The notes beneath the pieces are model-generated. The model was not told where the DNA came from. It worked only from the letters and a program-made list of their open reading frames with translations, and ran no database searches. Positions 9,700 to 47,770 of a stretch of DNA of 64,000 nucleotides are shown one piece after another; the first letter of the stretch is position 1; every line of letters starts with the position of its first letter. The stretch covers positions 1 to 64,000 of the forward strand of contig JAHBVG010000012.1 in assembly GCA_019637695.1 (NCBI GenBank), given 5' to 3'. Origin of the DNA: Caldilineaceae bacterium (lineage in GTDB: Bacteria > Chloroflexota > Anaerolineae > Caldilineales > Caldilineaceae). The position numbers were made by a program, and so were the translations under genes.

Positions 9700-11121
9700 T
9701 CAATTGAGAATTGCTTCTTTCACCGCCTCCAACGTCGGCGCGATGATCTGTGGTTCCCCCGTGGCTTGAATCGCGGCGTTGACATCTTTGAGACCGCTGC
9801 CGGTGTTGATGACGACGATGGTTTCGTCAGGATTGACGAGTCCATCACAGTACGCTTGCAGCAGGCCGGCGTAGGCCGTGGCCCCTGCTGGTTCCGCAAA
9901 GACCGCACCCAGCCGCGCCAACGGCGGAATCGCATTGAGGATCGCTTCGTCTTCCACTAGGACGTACACACCGCCGGTTTCGCGCACCGCCGCCAGCGCT
10001 TTGATCGCATCCCGCGGCGCGTTGACGCTGATGGAATCGGCGCGGGTGGTAGCATCCACGGGCAGTGGAACCTCTCGGTCCTCACGCCAGGCCGCGGCGA
10101 TGGCCGCGCTCTTTGACGACTGCACGCCGATGATGCGCGGCATCCGCTCGATCCATCCCAGCGCCAGCAGATCTTTGAATCCCTTGTGTACCCCGCCGAT
10201 GATGCAGCCATCCCCCACGGAGACGAAGACGACGTCGGGGATTGGGGATTGGGGATTGGAGATTGGGGATTGAGGATTGGGGACTGGGGACTGGGTATTA
10301 GATATTGGGTATTGGGTATCCTCTGCGGTCTGCGGTCTGCGGTCTGCGGTCTGCGGTCGGTCGCCCGCTAACTGCCAACGGCTAACTGCCAACTGCTCCC
10401 AAATCTCAAAGGCCACTGTCTTCTTGCCCTCGGTCATGTAGGGGTTGTAGCCGGTGTTGCGGTTGTACCAGCCGAATTCGTGGCAGGCGGCGACGCAGAG
10501 ATCGAAGGCGTCGTCGTAGGTGCCGTCCACGGCGAGGACGCGGCTGCCGTAGACGAGGAGTTGGGCGATCTTGGCGCGAGGGGCTGTCTTGGGCACGAAG
10601 ATGACGCTGGGCTGCCCGGCGGCGGCGGCTTGGGCGGCCAGGGCGGCGGCGGCGTTGCCCGTGCTGGCGGTGGCGACGACGGCGCGTCCACTTTCCTGGG
10701 CGCGGGCGACGGCAATGGCCGAGGCCCGATCCTTAAACGAAGCGGACGGGTTGCGTCCGTCATCTTTGATGTAAAGGTTGGGCAGGCCAATCGATGATCC
10801 CAGCCGGTGGGCGTGGAGCAGCGGCGTGTTGCCTACGGGCAACGGTGGCAGACTCCCGCGCCGGGCAATGGGGAGCAGCGGCCACCAGCGCCCAATCGAT
10901 CGGTCGGGATCTGCGGCAATCTGCGCGGGGGAGACGATCCCGTTAATGGCGGCGTAATCATATTGAACGTCGAGCGTACCCAGATCGCTGCCGATATTGG
11001 GACGACACGGGCATACATAGTCGATCTCATTCGCCGCGTAGACATGTCCACAGCGCAGACAGCGCAACCCGGTGACAAAAGGAGGTACTTCAGAAATGGC
11101 TCGAAGAGGATTCTCTGACAT
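9700..11121 (-). CDS. Threonine synthase-like PLP enzyme with repeat-encoded insertion
   Basis: A 473-residue fold-type II PLP enzyme. A zinc-ribbon-like N-terminus ([19 protein letters not shown]) is followed by the PLP-lysine segment [11 protein letters not shown], the STGNAAAAL phosphate-binding region and [13 protein letters not shown]. Threonine synthase converts O-phosphohomoserine to threonine. Between AFEIWEQL and PDVVFVS about 50 residues are encoded entirely by heptamer repeats (DRRPQTA, NPQSPIS units); the family has only a short loop there. The start MSENPLRAI is preferred because a TATAAT at 11166-11161 places the transcript start downstream of the longer in-frame start. A second threonine synthase lies at 40.8-42.1 kb. 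Confidence 0.8.
10237..10398. repeat. Composite heptamer array inside the threonine-synthase-like gene
   Basis: Four families lie end to end: GGGGATT/GGGGACT (10237-10295), ATTGGGT (10295-10319), CTGCGGT (10322-10359) and ACTGCCA/ACGGCTA (10369-10396). In the coding sense they read as NPQSPIP-, NTQYPIS- and DRRPQTA-type heptapeptides. The whole array is in frame with both gene halves. Confidence 0.85.
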
Positions 11122-11160
11122 GGCGCGTCTCAAGTGGATGGGTCTTGTCAATGTGCAATC

Positions 11161-11201
11161 ATTATACATCATTTGGTATCTCACCCTGATTCCGGTATAC
11201 T
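11161..11201. promoter_or_regulatory. Divergent promoters of the threonine-synthase-like and DUF3054 genes
   Basis: On the minus strand TATAAT lies at 11166-11161, 40 bp before the threonine-synthase-like start, with only a weak -35. On the plus strand TTGGTA (11173-11178) and TATACT (11196-11201) are 17 bp apart. The two promoters overlap back to back. Confidence 0.5.
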
Positions 11202-20819: not shown

Positions 20820-20881
20820 AAGCTACCTGCTACCTGCTATCTGCTACCTGCTATCTGCTACCTGCTATCTGCTACCTGTAC
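20820..20881. repeat. Heptamer array (TACCTGC/TATCTGC)
   Basis: About eight tandem period-7 units alternate TACCTGC and TATCTGC, preceded by a short CCGCAGA piece. It lies between the PIN/TRAM gene and cysS. This family contains TAG on the reverse strand and occurs only in a gap, unlike the stop-free families. Confidence 0.9.
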
Positions 20882-24488: not shown

Positions 24489-26156
24489 TTGTTAACCATT
24501 AGAAAACATTCCACATGGGGATCGATCTCTGCGATCCTCGCGTTTGTATTGATTGTGGCGGGCTGTGTCCCAACAGCGCGTCTGCTCGTCGGCGTCGGCG
24601 CCGAACAGGCCAGCCAGCAGGCGGATCTCCTGGCGACACCGATGATGGAGCCAGCTACACAGATCCCGACAGAAGAACCAACGGAAGAACCAACGGCTAC
24701 CAATACATCGACGCCGGCACCGACACCGACTAACACGGCGACGACCGCGCCAACCGCAACGAATACGCCAACGACCGCGCCGACAGCCACCAATACACCG
24801 ACGCCGGAACCGACGGCCACCAATACACCGACGCCGGAGCCGACAGCCACCAATACGCCGATGCCGGAGCCGACAGCCACCAATACGCCGATGCCGGAAC
24901 CGACGGCAACCAATACACCGATGCCGGAACCGACGGCAACCAACACAGCGACGACCGCGCCGACGGCGACCAATACGCCAATGCCGGAGCCGACAGCCAC
25001 CAATACGCCAATGCCGGAACCGACGGCGACCGCTACGCCAATGCTAGAAGCGGAAGCGATTAGAGTGCGCGTGGTACAGACTAGCGTGAACCTGCGCGGT
25101 GGACCTGGCACTACCTTCCCCATTGTTGGCAATGCGGTAGCAGGCGCGGAATTCCCCATCTTGGGGCGCAATGAAGCCGGGGATTGGTATCTGATCGATC
25201 GCGGCGCTGGGCTCTCTAGTTGGATCTTCGCCCAACTCGTCACAGTGCTGGGCGATGTCTCGACTATCCCAGTGGCCGATGACATCCCCGTAGCGCCATC
25301 CACTGGTGGGCAGCAGACAGGTACTGTAGCGACTCAACCCGCTGCACAACCCATTGCCCCCGGTACTGTGTCAGGCCGTCTACTCTACTCATTAGCCAAT
25401 ATGGACGCCGACCGCTGGGAATTGTGGGAATACAACTTCGCCACGGGCAGCAGCAACAAAGTAGCCGATTGGCGCACCGAAGTTGACATCAGCAAGGATG
25501 GCAACCAAATCGCCTATTACGCCTGGGCCGGGGATGTGGGCGCCCAAAACGAGGGTATCTGGATCATGGATGGCAATTTCGCCAATAATCGCGAGGTCAT
25601 TGGCGGCGGCGCGTATCCTAGCTTCAGCCCTGGCGGCGACCGGCTCTCCTTCAACGGCGGCGCAGATATTTACGTCATCAACACCGATGGGAAAGGGTTG
25701 CGCAGACTTACCCGCGGCGAATATGGGTCATGGAGCCCTGTAAACGATGAGATCGTCCACCGGGCCTGTGTCGGCGGCGGCTGTGGACTCTATGCTATCA
25801 ACGCCAATAGCGAGGATGCCAATGCCAAGCGCCGTCTGACCGAAGGCGGCAGCGATGGTCAGCCTGCGTGGAGCCCAGAGGGTAGCCAGATTGCCTACAT
25901 CAGCCAGGAAGACGGCAACTTCGAAGTCTACATTATCAATGCAGACGGCAGCGGCAAAGTACGTCTCACCAACGATCTTGCCAGCGATGGCCTGCCTGTG
26001 TGGAGCCCGGATGGTCAGTGGATCGCCTTCCGTAGCGACCGCGGCGGCAATTGGGCGATCTACATTGTCCGGCCAGATGGCAGCAATCTGCGCAAAGTCA
26101 CCGATGCCAATGTACTCGACCGCTGGTTCTTTGAGAAGATGGACTGGCGAAGGTAG
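24489..26156 (+). CDS. Lipoprotein with Thr-Pro repeat linker, SH3b domain and TolB-like propeller
   Basis: A 555-residue exported protein. The signal ends LAFVLIVAGC (lipobox). A long low-complexity linker of TPEPTATN-type octapeptides spans about residues 60-180. An SH3b domain (VNLRGGPGTTFPIVGNAV) follows near residue 190, then a C-terminal WD40-like/PD40 propeller with repeats such as GQPAWSPEGSQIAYIS and GLPVWSPDGQWIAFRSD. Probably a surface protein binding cell wall or other polymer. The start is uncertain: TTG here has AGAAAGG 7 bp upstream; a TTG at 24435 is also in frame, and no ATG precedes the signal. Confidence 0.8.
   Translation: MLTIRKHSTWGSISAILAFVLIVAGCVPTARLLVGVGAEQASQQADLLATPMMEPATQIPTEEPTEEPTATNTSTPAPTPTNTATTAPTATNTPTTAPTATNTPTPEPTATNTPTPEPTATNTPMPEPTATNTPMPEPTATNTPMPEPTATNTATTAPTATNTPMPEPTATNTPMPEPTATATPMLEAEAIRVRVVQTSVNLRGGPGTTFPIVGNAVAGAEFPILGRNEAGDWYLIDRGAGLSSWIFAQLVTVLGDVSTIPVADDIPVAPSTGGQQTGTVATQPAAQPIAPGTVSGRLLYSLANMDADRWELWEYNFATGSSNKVADWRTEVDISKDGNQIAYYAWAGDVGAQNEGIWIMDGNFANNREVIGGGAYPSFSPGGDRLSFNGGADIYVINTDGKGLRRLTRGEYGSWSPVNDEIVHRACVGGGCGLYAINANSEDANAKRRLTEGGSDGQPAWSPEGSQIAYISQEDGNFEVYIINADGSGKVRLTNDLASDGLPVWSPDGQWIAFRSDRGGNWAIYIVRPDGSNLRKVTDANVLDRWFFEKMDWRR
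24690..25045 (+). repeat. 24-bp tandem repeats coding for TPEPTATN linker
   Basis: About fourteen degenerate 24-bp units encode octapeptides (TPEPTATN, MPEPTATN, TTAPTATN). They are distinct in period from the heptamer families and confined to this gene. Likely variable in number between strains. Confidence 0.85.
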
Positions 26157-30847: not shown

Positions 30848-32929
30848 CTAGTCCCCGATCTCCAACTCGATCTCCAATGATGGGGCCAAGTAGATCAGTT
30901 CGGTATCTGCGCCGGGCGAACGGCGATACATGGCTACAAGCAGGCGAGCGGGAGCGGCATTGTTCAAGGATACTTGATGGCGCTCGCGCAGGATGTCCCC
31001 AACTTTCCAAAGTGAGGTTGGATAGAAGGGATGGCCCGGCGGTTGATCGCTCTGGTCGATACGGTTGCCGGTAGCGTCGAAGATTTGCACTGTCGTCGTG
31101 TAATCGCCATCGAGGGGCGCATCCACCCGCCAATAGAGCGCAATCTCTCCGTCTGCAATCTGTCGATCATAGCCCAACAATGTCAGCGGGCCAAAGATCA
31201 GGCCGAGCGGATGCTCAACGTTGGCCGCGTCCACGATGCTCTCCACGCGCACAAGGGGCGGCATGGACGCTTCCAGATTGAAGCGCACGGACAAGGCGTC
31301 CATCGGCTTGATCAAATAGACCGGACGCTCTCCCGCAGCCAGCGCCGTCTCGATCACAGATCCCACATCACCGAAACGATCCTCCGGTGTCAGCAGCGGA
31401 AAGATCCCGGTGATCCCCGGCGCGAGACCTTCCACGGCTTGCAGATAATAGAGCGGCACAATCTCGTTGCGGTCATTGCTAACGAGGACAGCATCCTCCG
31501 GCGGATCGGCAGCGAGGATGGCGTTCCACATCGTGCGCGCCATGTTGTTCCCCGACTGATCGATCTCCCCAAAGAAGCGCGTCAACGGCAGGATTGTGAA
31601 GAAGAGGATGGCGGCGAAGAGCGCGAATTGGAGAAGGTATTGGGGATTGGGGGTTGGGGATTGGGGACTGGGGGTTGGGGACTGGGGATTGGGGACTGGG
31701 GACTGGGGATTGGGGATTGGTTCGTCTGCGATCTGCGGTCGCTCCACTATCCGCCCGATCTGCCATACGCCAAACCCAGCCCAGATTGCACCCATCAAAT
31801 AGAGCGGGATGTAAAAGACAAAAATATCGCCGATCCCGTAGAAGAGGTTGAAGATCTGGTGGATCAAGGCGAAGGGGACGGTCAACAGCAGGATTGGCCA
31901 GCGGCGGGCGCGGACCAGAGCGATCAACCCGATCAACACCAGGGCTAGACCAGTCGCGTTGAAGTGGATCGTCCAGAATTCGACCATCTGTGGCAGCCGC
32001 GCCAGCGCGCCGTCGATCCCCAGCAGGCTCACGGCGAAGACACTGCCGGTAATGTGTTCGATAAAGCCCTGCCACCCAGGCGTGTAGAGCGACAGCACCT
32101 CGCCATTCAGCCGTGGATAGAGCCAGGGCGAGGCGTCCGGTACACTGCGCAGGGGGATGTAGAGGTAGAGCAACTGCGGCAGGCCGATCCCCAACAAGCC
32201 GATAATCCAGATCCGCATATTCCTCCACCAACTTCGCTCCATCCAAAAGAGCCACAGAATCACCCCAGGCAACAGAAATAGGCCGGTGCGGTGATGCGAA
32301 AGCGCAAGGCCGAGCAGTAGGGTAATGATGAATGGGGACTGGGGACTGGGGACTGGGGAATGGTGAATGGTGATTAGTGACTGGGGACTGGGGAATGGGG
32401 AATGGATATTAGGTATTGGGTGCTGCGGTCTGCCGTCTGCGGTCTGTAGCGCCAGCAGCACCGCCACAATCAACAGCGCGTGCAGCGTATAGACCTCGGC
32501 GATGATGCTTTGGCTCCAGAAGGTGGGGCTGAAGGCGAAGAGCAGGGCGGCGAAGAGGGCGGAGAGACGGCCCCAGCCAGTGGAAGGCAGCCAACGCGCC
32601 ATCAACAAATAGAGCAGTCCCACCGTGAGCGCACCCGTCACCGTGCTGAAGATGTTGAGGGCAAATGCCGGATCCATCCCGAAGAGCGCCAGCACGCGTT
32701 GCCAGATCCCGCCCAGGATCAAATAGAACGGATAGCCGGTAGGGTGCGCCAATCCGAAACGCCAGGCGGCAAATTGGAACTCGCCAGGGTCGCCCATCAA
32801 TAGCCCCGGCGGTAGCGTCCTTGTGTACCAGCCCAGGGTGAAGGCTATCAGCAACAGGGCGAGGCGACGGTCTGTGGCGGCAATATTGCGCATGGCGGTT
32901 GTGGGGGCAAATTTGACCGATGTTTTCAT
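30848..32929 (-). CDS. DUF2723-family membrane protein with two repeat-encoded insertions
   Basis: A 693-residue polytopic membrane protein. The diagnostic DUF2723 N-terminus is present: [27 protein letters not shown], and later [22 protein letters not shown]. The family is related to GT-C glycosyltransferases using polyprenyl-phosphate sugars; function is inferred only. Two hydrophilic stretches (about residues 160-200 and 400-430) consist of PNPQSP/PSPQSP repeats encoded by CCCCAGT/CCCCAAT heptamers. They lie in loops between membrane helices. Neighbours include an exporter, a polyprenol sugar synthase and another large membrane protein, consistent with envelope glycosylation. Confidence 0.8.
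31640..31740. repeat. Heptamer array inside the DUF2723 gene (first)
   Basis: About twelve units of GGGGATT/GGGGACT/GGGGGTT are followed by a CTGCGGT piece. The coding strand reads CCCCAAT, giving [15 protein letters not shown]-type peptide in frame. Confidence 0.88.
32328..32452. repeat. Heptamer array inside the DUF2723 gene (second)
   Basis: Mixed GGGGACT, GGTGAAT, ATTAGGT and CTGCGGT units translate on the coding strand to [17 protein letters not shown]- and SPQSP-type peptide between two membrane helices. Confidence 0.85.
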
Positions 32930-33793: not shown

Positions 33794-33846
33794 CGGCGGA
33801 CCGCAGACGAATCGGTCCCCAGTCCCCAATCCCTAATCCCCAATCA
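33794..33846. repeat. Heptamer arrays at the 3' end of the GT-C-like gene
   Basis: ACCGCAGACG is followed by CCCCAGT/CCCCAAT/CCCTAAT units. The array supplies the stop codon and last few codons of the membrane protein on the minus strand. Confidence 0.8.
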
Positions 33847-36778
33847 CAACATTCCCCACGGCGGCTGCCAGGTTCCGCCGATCCGGGTTAAGGCCCAGGC
33901 GCAGAAAGGCTTCGGCGCCATCCACCGATTGGATGGCTGCGCCGGGCGCTGCGTTTTTAACGCCGATCACAGAGAAGTAGCGTTCTCTCACAGCATCCAA
34001 TGTCAGATCTGCGCCGATGGTGCGGAGTTCCGCCATCGCCGCTTCGGTCAAAAAGTTCCATGCATCCCCACGGCTCGCCACGAGGACGGGATACCCGCCT
34101 GGGATCTGCGCCAGGAACTCGGCCAGCCGTGCGCTCTCGAACTCGTTGGCAGCAGTGTCGAAACCCTGCATCTCGACAACATCGCCGCGCTGAGGATGGA
34201 TCACCGTGACATTGACGCCGCGCCGCCCGGCGGAGGCGTTGACGGGTTGACCGGTTGCTTCCTCAAAGACAGAGATCCACGCGCCATCGGCAAAAGACTT
34301 CAACTCCACATCGGCCGGTAGCGTTGCGCCCGTTGCGCCAATCGACCGATCCCCGCCGAGGGCCTGGCGCGGGCTGATCGCATAGTTCCATCCCAGACAG
34401 AGTCGATTGACGGTGTTATGCAGAAGCGCTGCCGGCGCATCCCACGAGACAGTCTGCCAGTCGTTGATCAGATTCTGGGTTGCCAGCCGTTCGCCGTTGA
34501 TCCACGCGGTGACGGTCTGCGCCGCGCTGCCCGGGTAGTCGAATGGGCGGATCTGCGCATCCAGCCTATATTGTTTCGCTGCGTCGATCTGGCGTAAAGG
34601 GATGAGCAGGCAGCTTTCGGCATCTGTGGCCCAAACGGCAGGCAGGCCGTAGGGCGCGTCGATCTCAGCGGCGTCCCAGCCTTCGGCGCGATAGGGAAAG
34701 GTGCCTGGCTCGCCCAATGCCAGTTCAAAACGATCTTCGCCCGGCGACTGGACAACCCGATAGGCTTCGATACCATCGCCCGTCCAAAATGGCTGCGGCT
34801 CCAGCGGCAGCGTCGCCTTGAAAAAATCCCACGTCGCCTGCCACGTATCCACATAAGGGAAGCGCTGTTCGATGGGCGGCGTCAACAGCACGTAACCGAC
34901 GTTGTAAAGATAGAGCAGTTCCTCGGCCTGGGCTGCGGCAGCTTCGCCCAACTCCGGTGACGGTTCGCGGCCATTTTCCACCTCAATGATGGCCTGGAAG
35001 AAGGGAATGCGAGCGAAGTAGTCCATCTTAAAATCAGGGGCGCGGCTGATGTTGCCGCCCAGCATCGGTTTTTGATGCACCACCTGGTAGTACTGCAACA
35101 ACGTGCGTTCCGCGCCAAGTACGCCAAAACTGTTGCGCCATCCCAGCGGCGCGTGCATCACGCTCACCGGTGCAGGATCGGCGGCGATGATCTCGTAGAC
35201 GGCGGGCACACGGGCGTCGGAGAGGGGCAGCGGCAGGGCGAGATGCTCAAAGAGTAAAAGAGTAATGAGTAATGAGTAAAGAATGGGGGTTGCGACCTGG
35301 CGGGACAGGACTTTGCCCATTCTTAATTCATTATTCTTAATTTTTCCTAGAATCCAATAGATGGCGAAGCCAGCCAATACTGCCAGACCCAACATGAGCA
35401 GTACGCTGTTGCGGTTGGGGGCGCGGTTGGCTTTGATAATCGGGATGTAGTGGAGCAGCGCAAAGGGTAGCGGAAAGCTCGTCTCGACGCCGTCGAGGTC
35501 GAAGCGGTAGCGCCCGTTGATCTGCAAAAAAGGACCCAACGTAAAGAGGCCAAAGGTGAGGACGGTCCACCCCCAAATGGAGATGCGCCGTCGGTAGATC
35601 CACGCGCCGAGAAGGGCCAGCAGCATCGCCGTCCACCCCAAGAAGACGGTGTTGATGTCGCGGAAGCCGGTAGCGAGATCCCCCGGCAGCGTCCAATTCG
35701 TCAGCACCTGGCGCAGCGTGGGGATCAACTCGCCGCCGAAGATCGGATGGAGAACGGTGGGCGTGAACCAGCCCAACAGGTCCACGCTGAGCGGGATCGC
35801 CTCTCCCCATCCGCGCAACGAGTAATCATCGGTGAAGAATTGCACAAGGATCGGCACGAGGACGGGCGACCAAAGCGTAAAAGAAATCGCGCCGATGATG
35901 AGCAGGGCAGGGGCTAAAATACGTAATGCGTAATGCGTAATGCGTGGGGCGCTTCCCGATCCCCGATCCCCAGTCCCCAGTCCCCAGTCCTCAGTCCCCA
36001 GCTTCACCAGCACCACGATCACAGTAAAAATCGCTAAAAAGAGGGCGGTGATCATTTCGGCAAGACCGTTGAAGGCGAAGAAGATGCCGGCGAGGAGGGC
36101 AGCGCGGCGGCGATGGGATGGCGACAGATCCCCGTCCAGGCTACGTAGGAGCGTTAAGGCATAGAAAGGGATCCACTGGGTCGTCACCATGTCATAGTGA
36201 CCCAACGCAGCGTAGATCGCCCGATTCGAAGCAAAGGCGTAGAGGATCCCCGCGGCGAGGGCTGCCAGCATTGCGAATTGCGGATTGCGAATTGCGGGAC
36301 TGGGGTGGATGGTACCCGATTGGGGAGCGTCAAGACGATGAACGCCCAATCTCCGGTCCCCGATCCCCAATCCCCAATCCCTTTGCAGCAGATACCGCAC
36401 CAGCAAAAAGGTCCCGTACCCGCTTAAAATGGTACTGAGAAGGATGGTGATGTTGCTGGCAAAGACGAGACCGACGGCGACGTGTAACGGTTGGGCGATC
36501 AGCGCGTTGAAGAAGTTATAGGTGTAGAGGATCAGATCGATACCCAGCGGATAGTAGATCAGATCCGAGTGCAGCGGGCTGCTCAGGTTGTCAATGGCGG
36601 CATGTTTGAAATACCAGATGTTCCACAAAAAAGTGGATTCGTCAAAGGCCCACTGTGCTACGCCAGGCACCCAGCCGAAGATCCGCAACGCCAGCGGCCA
36701 GGAGAGGATCAACGTCAGAATGGTAAAGAGGCCGAGGACCAACGCGTGGAGTGAACTACGAGTGATTTTTGTCTGCAT
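33833..36778 (-). CDS. Large GT-C-like membrane protein with several repeat-encoded segments
   Basis: A 981-residue protein. The N-terminal 520 residues are polytopic (about 12 hydrophobic segments) and resemble bacterial GT-C or O-mannosyltransferase-like proteins, with an acidic first loop (WAFDESTFLWNIWYFKHA). The remainder is a soluble, probably extracytoplasmic domain with jelly-roll-like strands. At least four stretches come from heptamers: [20 protein letters not shown] followed by RITHYALRI, a piece of ILYSLLITLLL, and the last residues before the stop. Function is inferred from the neighbouring polyprenol-sugar synthase. TTG just before the chosen ATG is an alternative start. Confidence 0.65.
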   Translation of the reverse strand: MQTKITRSSLHALVLGLFTILTLILSWPLALRIFGWVPGVAQWAFDESTFLWNIWYFKHAAIDNLSSPLHSDLIYYPLGIDLILYTYNFFNALIAQPLHVAVGLVFASNITILLSTILSGYGTFLLVRYLLQRDWGLGIGDRRLGVHRLDAPQSGTIHPSPAIRNPQFAMLAALAAGILYAFASNRAIYAALGHYDMVTTQWIPFYALTLLRSLDGDLSPSHRRRAALLAGIFFAFNGLAEMITALFLAIFTVIVVLVKLGTEDWGLGTGDRGSGSAPRITHYALRILAPALLIIGAISFTLWSPVLVPILVQFFTDDYSLRGWGEAIPLSVDLLGWFTPTVLHPIFGGELIPTLRQVLTNWTLPGDLATGFRDINTVFLGWTAMLLALLGAWIYRRRISIWGWTVLTFGLFTLGPFLQINGRYRFDLDGVETSFPLPFALLHYIPIIKANRAPNRNSVLLMLGLAVLAGFAIYWILGKIKNNELRMGKVLSRQVATPILYSLLITLLLFEHLALPLPLSDARVPAVYEIIAADPAPVSVMHAPLGWRNSFGVLGAERTLLQYYQVVHQKPMLGGNISRAPDFKMDYFARIPFFQAIIEVENGREPSPELGEAAAAQAEELLYLYNVGYVLLTPPIEQRFPYVDTWQATWDFFKATLPLEPQPFWTGDGIEAYRVVQSPGEDRFELALGEPGTFPYRAEGWDAAEIDAPYGLPAVWATDAESCLLIPLRQIDAAKQYRLDAQIRPFDYPGSAAQTVTAWINGERLATQNLINDWQTVSWDAPAALLHNTVNRLCLGWNYAISPRQALGGDRSIGATGATLPADVELKSFADGAWISVFEEATGQPVNASAGRRGVNVTVIHPQRGDVVEMQGFDTAANEFESARLAEFLAQIPGGYPVLVASRGDAWNFLTEAAMAELRTIGADLTLDAVRERYFSVIGVKNAAPGAAIQSVDGAEAFLRLGLNPDRRNLAAAVGNVVIGD
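35252..35345. repeat. GAGTAAT heptamers within a membrane helix of the GT-C-like gene
   Basis: AAGAGTAATGAGTAATGAGTAA, read on the coding strand as CTCATTA units, gives hydrophobic SLLITLL residues. A second AATTCATTATTCTTAAT piece follows at about 35320-35345. Only the stop-free orientation is found inside the gene. Confidence 0.7.
35917..36003. repeat. TAATGCG and CCCCAGT arrays inside the GT-C-like gene
   Basis: Four TAATGCG units are followed by about nine CCCCGAT/CCCCAGT units. The coding strand reads RITHYAL from CGCATTA and DWGLGTGD from the other array. Confidence 0.88.
36270..36392. repeat. ATTGCGA and CCCCAAT arrays inside the GT-C-like gene
   Basis: ATTGCGAATTGCGGATTGCG is followed, after a short unique part, by CCCCGATCCCCAATCCCC. 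They encode the WGLGIGDRR ... AIRNPQFAML stretch between two membrane helices. Confidence 0.8.
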
Positions 36779-36814
36779 CAATACAGTTACTCGGATTGGT
36801 TGTGAAGCTTAATA

Positions 36815-39084: not shown

Positions 39085-40176
39085 TCAACTGTTCATCGAA
39101 GTTGAACTGTCTTTGCCAGGTTCGTCAGAGGTCAGCGCCAGCGCCGTTGTCATCTGTTCCAACTCTTTTTTCAGCGCTTCAAAACCAGCCGGGTCAATCC
39201 CGGTTGCTGTGGTGATGACGCTCCAATCTACACCTGCCGCCAACAGGCTCTCAATTGTATGGACTTTGCCTTTAATCTCGCCCAGTCGCAAACCTTCTTG
39301 TTGGCCTTCTTGACGGCCCTCTTGACGGCCCTCTTGACGGCCTTCTTGACGGCCTTCTTGACGGCCTTCTTGACGGCCTTCTTGACGGCCCTTCTCTTCG
39401 CCTTGTTGTAACAACTCCTCGGCATAGGTCAACATATCGCCTCCAATGTTGGTTTCAAACTGCCGCACACTCTCTGCAAAGTCCTGCACCAGCCGCCGCT
39501 CCTGCGTCGCCAGAAGATAGACCACGAAGACGCGCACATAATCCGCGCCGCCTGTCTTCGTCACCTGGGCCAGCAGCCGCGCCGCTTCTCGCAACAACTC
39601 GCGCACCGGCTCGTGGAAGGCTGCCATCATCAGCAGTTGCGCCACCTGAGCCTTCAGCCCACCCTGAATCTGCTCCGGCGGTAGTTCGGACTGATCCACC
39701 AGCAGATGGGCGAAGCGGAGGATGAAGCTGTACGCCCCCATCTCCTCGTCGAAGAGGTCGGCGAACTCGGTGGAGTGTTGCCAACGGCGGCGGCCTTGAT
39801 AGAAGACCAGCGGCACAATCGGGCGTAGCCTCTCCTGCTCTGGATACTCCTTGAAGGACTCATCCCAGATGCGGCACATGTACTTGAGCAGCCGAAAGCG
39901 CATCCAGCGATCCGGCGTGGACTGATGCTCGAACAGCAGATAAAGATAGAGGGGTTCGCCGGTTCCCTGTCGTCCCACTGTGTAGAGCAGGTCCGATTCG
40001 CTGTTGCGCAGGGCGTCGTCCACGAAGCTGGTCTCCACCAGTGTCAGCGTGGACCACTCCAGCCGCTCGCTGAGGGCAGCGGGCAGGTGGGCACGCAGGA
40101 AGCTCTCCGCCTCCTCGGTATCCGAGAAGACTGTGCGGAAGAGCTTATCGTGTGGTTGCTGCCTGCCCATGGACAT
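39085..40176 (-). CDS. Rpn-family PD-(D/E)XK nuclease / transposase-like protein
   Basis: A 363-residue protein of the recombination-promoting nuclease (RpnA-like, formerly transposase_31) family. The N-terminus MSMGRQQPHDKLFRTVFSD is characteristic. The nuclease core shows SESDLLYTV and YLYLLFEHQS (D...ExQ), then RLRPIVPLVFYQG. A low-complexity (GRQE)n segment near residue 275 is encoded by 12-bp repeats. AGGG lies 6 bp before this ATG, which also avoids overlap with the upstream Mrr-like gene. Rpn proteins promote RecA-independent recombination in E. coli and have been linked to phage defence. Confidence 0.85.
   Translation of the reverse strand: MSMGRQQPHDKLFRTVFSDTEEAESFLRAHLPAALSERLEWSTLTLVETSFVDDALRNSESDLLYTVGRQGTGEPLYLYLLFEHQSTPDRWMRFRLLKYMCRIWDESFKEYPEQERLRPIVPLVFYQGRRRWQHSTEFADLFDEEMGAYSFILRFAHLLVDQSELPPEQIQGGLKAQVAQLLMMAAFHEPVRELLREAARLLAQVTKTGGADYVRVFVVYLLATQERRLVQDFAESVRQFETNIGGDMLTYAEELLQQGEEKGRQEGRQEGRQEGRQEGRQEGRQEGRQEGQQEGLRLGEIKGKVHTIESLLAAGVDWSVITTATGIDPAGFEALKKELEQMTTALALTSDEPGKDSSTSMNS
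39300..39394. repeat. 12-bp tandem repeats coding for GRQE
   Basis: About eight near-identical CTTCTTGACGGC units encode (GRQE)n on the minus strand. Period 12 keeps the frame, so unit number can change without breaking the gene. Confidence 0.9.
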
Positions 40177-40777: not shown

Positions 40778-42133
40778 CTAAAGCGCGAATGAGGACGCCT
40801 CCAAACGCCGGGCGATGGTTTTCTTTACCACATCGGGGTCGGGCGGCAGATAGACGAGCGGATTGGCAAATTGACTTTCCACCTCGGCCAGCGTCCCCTC
40901 GTGATAGCCCACTTTAAAGGGCGTAAACTTGAGGCCATGCGCGGTGCTGATCACCACCACTCGATCATTGCGTTGGACAAGTCCCTGACTGCGCAACTTG
41001 TAAAGGACCGCCAGCGCCGTCCCCGTGTGTGGACAGGTGTACATGCCGGTGAGATCGGCCATCGTCGCCGCCTCGGCCATCTCGTGCTCGGTGGCCTGTT
41101 CCACCAACCCACCCGATTCGATCACCGCCTGTACTGCTTTGTCGTAGCTCACCGGGTCGCCAATGCGGATGGCCGAAGCCAGCGTCTCGCTCGATTGGAT
41201 CGTCACCTTTTCGGTGAAGCCGTTTTTGTAGCTCAGATAGAATGGATTTGCCTTCTCGGCCTGTGCCGCCACCAACCGCGGCATCTTGTCGGTGATCCCC
41301 AGATCCATGAGCAGTTTGAGTCCTTTGTAGAGCGCGCTGATGTTGCCCAGGTTGCCCACAGGGATAATGATCCAATCGGGAACCTCCCAATCGAACTGCT
41401 GCACGATCTCGATACCCACGGTCTTCTGGCCTTCGATGCGTAAGCTGTTCATCGAGTTAGCCAGGTAGATCGTGTTGTCTTCGGTTACCTCGCGGACCAC
41501 GCGCATACAGCCATCGAAATCCGTATCCAACGCAAGGACGTGCGCGCCGTTGGCGATGGGCTGGATCAACTGCGCCGGGCTGACCTTCCCCTGCGGCAGG
41601 AAGATGATGGCCGGGATGCCAGCAGCGGCGGCATAGGCGGCGAGGGCGGCGCTGGTGTCCCCCGTGCTGGCGCAAGAGACGGCGCGCACCGGCTTGCCCA
41701 TGGTCATCATCTGTTTGACAACGCTGACAAGGACGGTCATGCCCAGATCTTTGAAGCTGCCTGTGTGGCTATTGCCGCAGAGCTTGACCCAGAGTTCAGG
41801 CAGATCAAGCTGTTTGCCCAGCCGTTCCGCCCAGAAGAGGTTGGAGTTCCCCTCGTACATGCTGACGATGTTTGCATCGTCGATGGTGGGGATCACCCAT
41901 TCCTTCTTGCCCCAGACGCCGCTGCCATAGGGCCAGGACGTTGCGCCCACACGGCTCTCGAAGAGCGCCTTCCACTCGGCGGCGGATCGTCCGCGCAGTG
42001 CGTCCACGTCGTGGGCCACTTCCAAAAGACCGCCGCAGGTGGGGCAGGTGTAGATCACATCGTAGATAGACCACTCGCCGGGGCAGCCCCGGAAACAACG
42101 AAACGCGACATGATAGCCTTTCATCTCAGCCAT
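40778..42133 (-). CDS. thrC: Threonine synthase
   Basis: A 451-residue fold-type II PLP enzyme making threonine from O-phosphohomoserine. An N-terminal zinc-ribbon-like part (CFRGCPG, CPTCGG) precedes [14 protein letters not shown] and the PLP lysine segment [27 protein letters not shown] binds the phosphate, and [17 protein letters not shown] follows. The start is set at [11 protein letters not shown]; an in-frame TTG lies 5 codons up. Unlike the paralogue at 9.7-11.1 kb it has no repeat insertion and full family spacing, so this is likely the main enzyme. Confidence 0.92.
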
Positions 42134-42196
42134 TTCTTTCAACGCCAAAGCGAGAGGGCGCGTCCATTCGCCCGGTGAATGAGAACAGTATTGGGG

Positions 42197-47244: not shown

Positions 47245-47770
47245 GAGCGCCTCCTTGGTGATGGAATTTTCTTGTCGCCCTATTATCCACCAATTCCACA
47301 GATGGCGCAGCTTTGATCACGGCTGGCTGCATCGGAGTCAGCACCCTTACGAATCATCAACCCATTCTGAATATACCCTTTTCGTTTACATAGAACGCAG
47401 ACATGGGCCAGGCCGTCTGATTTTGTCCTGGCCCCATAGTATAGAGTTCCAAGTGTAAGGCTAATAGATATCCTTACGATTCTTAAGTTTATAGATTTAA
47501 AATTTTAGGAGTTGCCAGCAGGGGTTGCAGTGATGCTGAAGGGCGCTACTCAATTTGAGGTGTCTTGTTGCTGTCAGTCAGGGTTAGAGATTTTCACATA
47601 TAGAGAGAACTTAACGCAGAGACGCGGAGAAGCAGAGACGCAGAGATGAAGTGAGGGACTTAGACCAGCGACTAAATAGGTCATAGATTTACCAGATATT
47701 GGATATTGGATATCAGAGATGTCGTACACAAGGACTAATCTCCAACATCCAATATCCAATATCCAGTAGG
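47245..47770. other. 526-bp gap with a half MITE and repeats, no gene
   Basis: 47344-47378 is the right 35 bp of the 5.6-kb MITE with two substitutions; no matching left end or target duplication is found. 47615-47650 has an 8-bp repeat (ACGCAGAG/ACGCGGAG). 47695-47715 and 47740-47768 hold TATTGGA / CCAATAT heptamers in opposite orientations. Nothing coding is recognised, and a clear promoter was not found. Confidence 0.7.

What the first reader, a model, noticed from the sequence alone, without database searches (positions are those of the whole stretch)
10237..10398. Threonine-synthase-like enzyme carries about 50 residues translated from four heptamer families in tandem
The insertion sits between AFEIWEQL and [11 protein letters not shown], in the middle of a conserved PLP-enzyme core, with both flanks in one frame. 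It reads as DRRPQTA-, NTQYPIS- and NPQSPIS-type heptapeptides. A paralogue at 40.8 kb lacks it. The array is about 160 bp, and a multiple of 3 was evidently kept.
Basis: partly seen in the sequence, partly recalled or inferred. Interest (0 to 1): 0.65.

Follow-up and report, generated by a model that had tools for sequence, protein, structure and literature searches.

The report
Heptamer repeats colonising enzyme loops
A threonine-making enzyme of a Chloroflexota bacterium carries about 50 floppy residues read from 7-base repeat arrays in one tolerant surface loop; relatives carry different arrays in that same loop, and two other housekeeping enzymes tested show the same pattern.

Summary
Observation confirmed. 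Window 9700-11121 (-) encodes a threonine synthase. Its linker (10240-10389, 50 aa) is read in frame from three adjacent heptamer arrays. The linker joins an alpha-helix to the beta-strand before the PLP phosphate loop; AlphaFold leaves most of it disordered in a confident core. Solved threonine synthases have about 2 residues there; repeat-free family orthologues have 10-21.

The case is not isolated. The same ThrC loop holds arrays in 9 of 38 orthologues, of differing heptamer families. One loop of KsgA (11 of 30) and one of LeuRS (5 of 30) behave alike. All 98 linkers are multiples of 3. In these genes 37 arrays lie in the loops (6 kb) and 0 in the other 145 kb.

Genome-wide, arrays often form convergent pairs: each heptamer family has a fixed inward strand (122 of 130 arms; 42 of 42 out of sample). 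That polarity is published for one family in Xanthomonas.

Best reading: STRR-like heptamer DNA, repeatedly gained and exchanged, survives in genes only in frame and in permissive loops. No function of the peptide is shown. Ku was found in 0 of 46 genomes and RVT_1 not in G000, which argues against those two routes.

The parts
9700..11121 (-). Threonine synthase-like gene (PLP fold type II), ATG start at 11121 (GTG-start ORF to 11184)
   Evidence: PF00291 E=7.4e-71; TIGR00260 thrC 180.2 bits over cutoff 167.1, PRK08197 271.3 below cutoff 303; Foldseek 2zsj TMt 0.84
10240..10389 (-). The 50-aa linker between EIWEQL and PDVVFV, read from heptamer arrays
   Evidence: 150 bp, lag-7 score 55, p=0.0005 in 2000 shuffles; AF2 residues 254-289 of 472 mostly pLDDT<50
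10237..10316 (.). Array 1: GGGGATT drifting to GGGGACT and GGGTATT; sense strand (-) is C-rich, peptide [14 protein letters not shown]
   Evidence: TRF
10322..10358 (.). Array 2: TCTGCGG x5.3, peptide DRRPQTA
   Evidence: TRF
10367..10397 (.). Array 3: GCTAACTGCCAACG x2.2 (AACTGCC family)
   Evidence: TRF; an AACTGC-type array lies at the same end of the linker in G001
40928..42142 (-). Second threonine-synthase-like gene without the array (linker DWEV)
   Evidence: tblastn 27% identity, E=8.8e-25
31639..31740 (.). Another in-frame array in membrane protein ORF 30851-32929 (-)
   Evidence: PF11028 TMEM260-like
32333..32446 (.). Second composite (GGGGACT then CTGCGGT) in the same ORF, same order as in ThrC
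35918..36001 (.). In-frame array in ORF 33836-36808 (-), one of only two G-rich-sense cases
36270..36381 (.). Second in-frame array in the same ORF (GCGAATT arm facing CCCCAAT arm)

Best explanation
The segment is STRR-like (short tandemly repeated repetitive) heptamer DNA that has come to occupy a permissive alpha-to-beta loop of threonine synthase. Heptamer arrays of many families are dispersed through this genome and its relatives, often as convergent two-arm composites. Arrays appear, expand, decay and are swapped for other families. Inside genes, only those survive that leave the reading frame open, keep a multiple of 3 overall and sit in a loop or linker that tolerates a disordered polar peptide. 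Because 7 and 3 share no factor, a perfect array reads as the same heptapeptide in all three frames of a strand, so one heptamer is either stop-free or closed in every frame (arithmetic). SHOWN: the arrays, frame, recurrence at the same loops with different families, confinement to those loops, constraint on the flanks, disorder in the model, polarity. INFERRED: translation in vivo, absence of a peptide function, and origin by replication slippage with strand switching and exchange between arrays.
For: ThrC loop: arrays in 9 of 38 orthologues; KsgA loop 11 of 30; LeuRS loop 5 of 30, with differing families; all 98 linkers mod 3 = 0 (DNA). 37 lag-7 arrays in the loops (6,012 bp) against 0 in the other 145,032 bp of these genes. 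LeuRS: 24 of 25 array-free loops are exactly 13 aa, arrays make it 27-40; G000's native TE-GDP turn survives between two arms. G069 has a KsgA array although none of the 12 other g9 orthologues examined reaches the array threshold. dN/dS G000-G001: ThrC flanks 0.24 and 0.09, linker 0.65; KsgA flanks 0.14 and 0.12, linker 0.82. AF2: core pLDDT mostly >90, residues 254-289 mostly <50, between helix 234-252 and strand 296-300. Composite dispersed in the genome: 48 matches listed, same order. Where both flanks code on one strand, 24 of 28 clusters are in frame and open (one of them, at 20822, lies before the CysS start and should be subtracted).
Against: No transcript, peptide or enzyme assay was available. 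G000 has other threonine-synthase-like genes (39% match on C84), so this copy need not be essential. In ThrC the presence of some array could be one old gain in the g1-g7 lineage followed by family turnover; only KsgA and LeuRS clearly need several gains (tree). The origin mechanism is not demonstrated; the register of array ends was uninformative.
Confidence: 0.8

Rival explanations
1. The disordered peptide is selected for, for example as a docking, clustering or regulatory segment.
For: Long loops persist across g1 and g7 for ThrC and KsgA; Borg repeat proteins are argued to gain useful disordered regions (PMC9879509, passages).
Against: Peptide sequence is not conserved between species; linker dN/dS 0.65 and 0.82 against 0.09-0.24 in the flanks; the same heptapeptides occur in unrelated proteins.
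Confidence: 0.1
2. A phase-variable switch: gain or loss of one 7-base unit shifts the frame and turns the enzyme off, as in contingency loci.
For: The unit is not a multiple of 3 and one array is perfect (5.3 copies).
Against: 98 of 98 linkers are in frame; core enzymes such as LeuRS are unlikely on/off targets; most arrays are degenerate.
Confidence: 0.05
3. The arrays arrive as a defined mobile element (RPE-, REPIN- or MITE-like) with its own mobilising enzyme.
For: Composite order and strand recur: 22 of 22 clusters with both G and CTGCGGT families have the same strand and order (partly ascertained with such a query); fixed inward polarity.
Against: No constant termini; arms come in many families and combinations; register of the ends not fixed (inconclusive); no target-site duplication established.
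Confidence: 0.15
4. Assembly or sequencing artefact.
For: The genomes are mostly draft assemblies with tandem repeats (contig counts).
Against: Same loop, frame kept, in many independent assemblies; arrays are imperfect, not collapsed.
Confidence: 0.02

Closest known systems
Cyanobacterial/Xanthomonas heptameric repeats (STRR; GGGGA(C/T)T in Nostoc, GGGAATC in Xanthomonas; PMC4692102, section 11 and passages read)
   Same: Same GGGGA(C/T)T heptamer as here; dispersed; 68% intergenic in Nostoc, so about a third intragenic; convergent pairs in Xanthomonas (70 in Xcc, 75 in Xac); G-rich strand avoided upstream of and inside genes, as here
   Different: Here many families share one polarity rule, and the same loop of conserved enzymes carries different families in different species; in the parts I read the paper did not examine encoded peptides or loops
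Rickettsia palindromic elements (described in PMC10969869, passage; original papers not read)
   Same: Repeats inserted in frame in unrelated metabolic genes, compatible with function
   Different: RPEs are elements of about 150 bp in ten families with conserved peptides; here heptamer arrays with no constant boundary
Borg tandem repeats (PMC9879509, passages)
   Same: Tandem repeats in genes that make disordered regions
   Different: Borg units in genes are divisible by 3; here the unit is 7 and only the total is
Coding palindromes of Nematomorpha mitochondria (PMC6649704, abstract)
   Same: Inverted repeats inside coding genes (cf. LeuRS arms in G000 and G005)
   Different: There the arms encode conserved residues and are not described as tandem arrays

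Membership tests
Threonine synthase (ThrC, PLP fold type II) | PALP fold and ThrC profile | tested here: met
   PF00291 E=7.4e-71; TIGR00260 over its cutoff but PRK08197 below its own; Foldseek best 2zsj TMt 0.84
Threonine synthase (ThrC, PLP fold type II) | PLP lysine in SFKDR motif and glycine-rich phosphate loop | tested here: met
   K129 and G302-D303-G304 invariant in 46 sequences; their roles are recalled
Threonine synthase (ThrC, PLP fold type II) | Catalyses O-phosphohomoserine to threonine | not testable with these tools
   No assay
STRR / heptameric repeats | Tandem 7-bp units dispersed in many copies | tested here: met
   868 kb of G000: 125 lag-7 arrays, 0-17 at other lags from 4 to 12
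STRR / heptameric repeats | GGGGA(C/T)T consensus; G-rich strand avoided in 5' regions and ORFs | tested here: met
   Upstream 13 C-sense to 0; downstream 12 G-sense to 5; in frame 16 C-sense to 2 G-sense
Rickettsia palindromic elements / MITE | Fixed-length element with constant boundaries | tested here: not met
   Variable arms and spacer
Borg-type coding repeats | Unit length divisible by 3 inside ORFs | tested here: not met
   Unit is 7
Phase-variable contingency locus | Unit-number polymorphism between clones | not testable with these tools
   No reads or clonal isolates; all 98 orthologous linkers in frame

The most novel reading that the evidence does not exclude
A specific, unrecognised DNA process makes convergent two-arm heptamer elements: 5'-(X)n-spacer-(Y')m-3', where X and Y come from one strand-specific lexicon whose inward 3' strand is mostly G-rich, as if both 3' ends at a break or hairpin were tailed with 7-base units and then joined (the topology of a telomere fusion). 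It works without Ku and without any RVT_1-type reverse transcriptase found in G000, and keeps reseeding the same permissive loops of core enzymes, so the arrays act as natural insertion probes of protein loops.
Probability: 0.3. Interest if true: 0.8.

Novelty: new variant of a known kind. Interest (0 to 1): 0.6.

Why it matters
It shows simple-repeat DNA repeatedly becoming protein sequence in essential, conserved enzymes, with natural replicates: the same loop, different species, different heptamers. That gives a direct way to map permissive loops and to study how new disordered segments are born and lost. The polarity rule across many heptamer families gives a testable constraint on how bacterial heptamer arrays arise, which the papers seen here leave open.

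Tried and rejected
Ku-dependent end joining as the origin: Ku (PF02735) found in 0 of 46 family genomes. Reverse-transcriptase or telomerase-like (DRT10-type; PMC12632851, abstract and outline read) origin: RVT_1 matched nothing in G000 (89% complete) nor in G013, G030, G007 and G023, all with arrays; a diverged RT below the model or in a missing part is not excluded. Fixed register of array ends as a sign of a template: inconclusive, because the search pattern itself fixes the outer register. Peptide chemistry as the cause of the strand bias: weakened, because the bias is as strong in upstream regions, which points to the nucleic acid (G-quadruplex) instead. The 'in-frame' class falls from 24 to 23 after one search showed that the array at 20822 precedes the CysS start. 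First tree dropped because the LeuRS query was misread; one search replaces it. Literature: eight full-text searches listed no report of heptamer arrays recurring in the same loop of orthologous enzymes; only listings, abstracts and the passages named were read, and subscription journals are mostly absent.

Full report
OBSERVATION. The ORF 9700-11184 (-) encodes 494 aa (ATG start at 11121 gives 473) and is a threonine synthase-like PLP enzyme. Between EIWEQL and PDVVFV it carries 50 aa (51 with the proline) read from three adjacent heptamer arrays. In the window lag-7 arrays number 13, lags 4-6 and 9-11 give 0, lags 8 and 12 give 1 each, shuffles 0.

PLACE IN THE ENZYME. In the AF2 model (46-sequence alignment, mean pLDDT 88.3, pTM 0.87) residues 254-263 and 265-289 have pLDDT below 50, between helix 234-252 and strand 296-300 (472-aa numbering; add 22 for the ORF numbering); the strand leads straight into the invariant G302-D303-G304. 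Solved threonine synthases pass from the helix to the strand with about 2 residues (Aquifex 2zsj) and match the model with TMt 0.82-0.85 for the closest bacterial entries. From established knowledge of fold type II enzymes, loops entering the N-terminal side of a strand lie away from the active site; I did not measure distances. The paralogue at 40928-42142 has only DWEV there.

ORTHOLOGUES. Family genomes (close relatives are named Caldilineaceae; Chloroflexota): 37 of 46 have this ThrC at E<=1e-60. Of 38 orthologues with both flanks (37 of the family plus outgroup G043; G056 dropped, see below), 9 have a significant array in the loop (p<=0.002 in 2000 shuffles and score>=9 at lag 7 or 8): G000, G001, G027, G007, G030, G023, G013, G019 and G004; the 28 other family members have 10-21 aa and G043 has 4. 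Array sequences differ: AGCAGTT with CGCAATT in G001, ACGCAGAG-type octamers with CGCAATA in G027, GAGTTA with AACTC in G030, ATGGCGA with CGCCATT in G013, GGGGCGA in G004. G056, of another family, has a different repeat (LTPGPSPKGRG type) at the site, but its contig ends there.

TWO MORE ENZYMES. Two other housekeeping genes with an in-frame array in G000 were followed and both behave alike. KsgA (PF00398), loop before YKVVANLPY: 11 of 30 orthologues examined (of 45 genomes with a hit) have arrays. LeuRS (PF13603 editing domain), loop before VFTTRPDT: 5 of 30 (of 46 genomes with a hit). The 30 are the best-scoring loci, so closer relatives are over-represented. Array-free LeuRS loops are 13 aa in 24 of 25, G001 having 20. 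LeuRS arrays occur in G000 but not in its sister G001, in three of seven g7 members examined, and in the distant G005; KsgA arrays occur in G005 and in G069, while none of the other 12 g9 orthologues examined passes the threshold (G031 is weak). Several gains are therefore needed (tree). All 98 linkers of the three genes are multiples of 3 although the flanks were located separately. Across these genes 37 lag-7 arrays lie in the loops and none in the remaining 145 kb. Other G000 proteins with in-frame arrays: a family-2 glycosyltransferase just before DFVLLLNPDAE, a Fer2/Fer2_2 protein between its two domains, a dihydrolipoamide acyltransferase linker, a FemAB protein and many polytopic membrane proteins.

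CONSTRAINT. dN/dS between G000 and G001 is 0.24 and 0.09 in the ThrC flanks against 0.65 in the linker; KsgA 0.14 and 0.12 against 0.82; LeuRS flanks 0.09 and 0.12. The linker alignments are uncertain because the arrays are not all homologous, so those figures are rough.

GENOME-WIDE ANATOMY. In 868 kb of G000 there are 125 lag-7 arrays against 0-17 at other lags from 4 to 12. Of 107 clusters with enough flank (3 at edges dropped), 24 lie in frame between coding flanks, 1 has a stop, 3 sit between same-strand flanks in different frames, 2 between opposite strands, 62 have one coding side and 15 none (a home-made codon-usage call, and the one at 20822 is really a CysS leader). Sense strand of in-frame G-family arrays: 16 C-rich, 2 G-rich. 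Beside genes: upstream 13 C-sense to 0, downstream 12 G-sense to 5. This repeats what was published for Nostoc and Xanthomonas (PMC4692102) and, since it holds upstream of genes too, points to RNA-level avoidance of G-rich runs.

POLARITY. Neighbouring arrays within 80 bp are inverted copies of one family in 24 of 89 pairs, direct copies in 3, different families in 62; random pairing gives 6.6% inverted and 6.3% direct. In 79 clusters with two or more arms, each family points inward with the same strand: 122 of 130 arms in families seen at least twice; inward strands hold 417 G and 150 C. With that lexicon, arms in stretches of G001, G007, G034 and G013 point as predicted in 42 of 42 cases (32 further arms have families absent from the lexicon), and inward strands have G>C in 64 and G<C in 5. 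G005 stretches gave no two-arm cluster. Xanthomonas GGGAATC pairs are reported as convergent (PMC4692102), so the rule is known there for one family; here it spans many families and mixed pairs. Clusters carrying both the G and CTGCGGT families have the same strand and order in 22 of 22. Much of the G000 sample was chosen around hits to the ThrC composite, which favours that composite; the out-of-sample stretches were not chosen that way, apart from the neighbourhoods of the ThrC gene in G001 and G007.

MECHANISM. Shown: in-frame arrays, recurrent use of the same loops with different families, exclusion from the rest of the genes, relaxed linkers, fixed polarity. Inferred: arrays arise and spread by replication slippage with strand switching and by exchange between arrays, and selection on the host enzyme filters what remains. 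Ku was found in 0 of 46 genomes and no RVT_1 in G000, which argues against Ku-type end joining and, less strongly, against a telomerase-like enzyme. In LeuRS of G000 the native turn (TE-GDP) remains between two complementary arms, which suits growth on both sides of a hairpin more than insertion of a finished block.

VERDICT. The finding is real and ordinary in kind (heptamer repeats inside genes are known), but the repeated colonisation of the same loops in conserved enzymes by different heptamers, and the polarity rule across families, go beyond what the papers found here report.

Noticed in passing
G000 loci and window, e.g. L181 15153-15221, L182 9663-9768, window 47695-47765: Convergent heptamer-array pairs with a fixed inward strand per family.
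   Followed up: partly
window 20822-20878: Regular GCTACCT/GCTATCT array directly before the cysteinyl-tRNA synthetase gene, probably in its leader.
   Followed up: partly
L028 (G056), ThrC loop: A different repeat (LTPGPSPKGRG / PHPRPLSQGGGG peptides) at the same ThrC site in another Chloroflexota family; the contig ends inside it.
   Followed up: no
L205 (G026) and L202 (G003), KsgA loop: QFDDR-type peptide repeats (15-bp DNA period) in the same KsgA loop, a non-heptamer expansion.
   Followed up: no
window 24687-25044: 30/90-bp period coding-like repeat rich in ACC-GAC-GCC (PT-type linker), unrelated to the heptamers.
   Followed up: no
window 39293-39395: 12-bp tandem repeat CCTTCTTGACGG, 8.5 copies.
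   Followed up: no
G000 contig C118, stretches L152-L155: 80 kb with no array cluster while other stretches have many: very uneven density.
   Followed up: no
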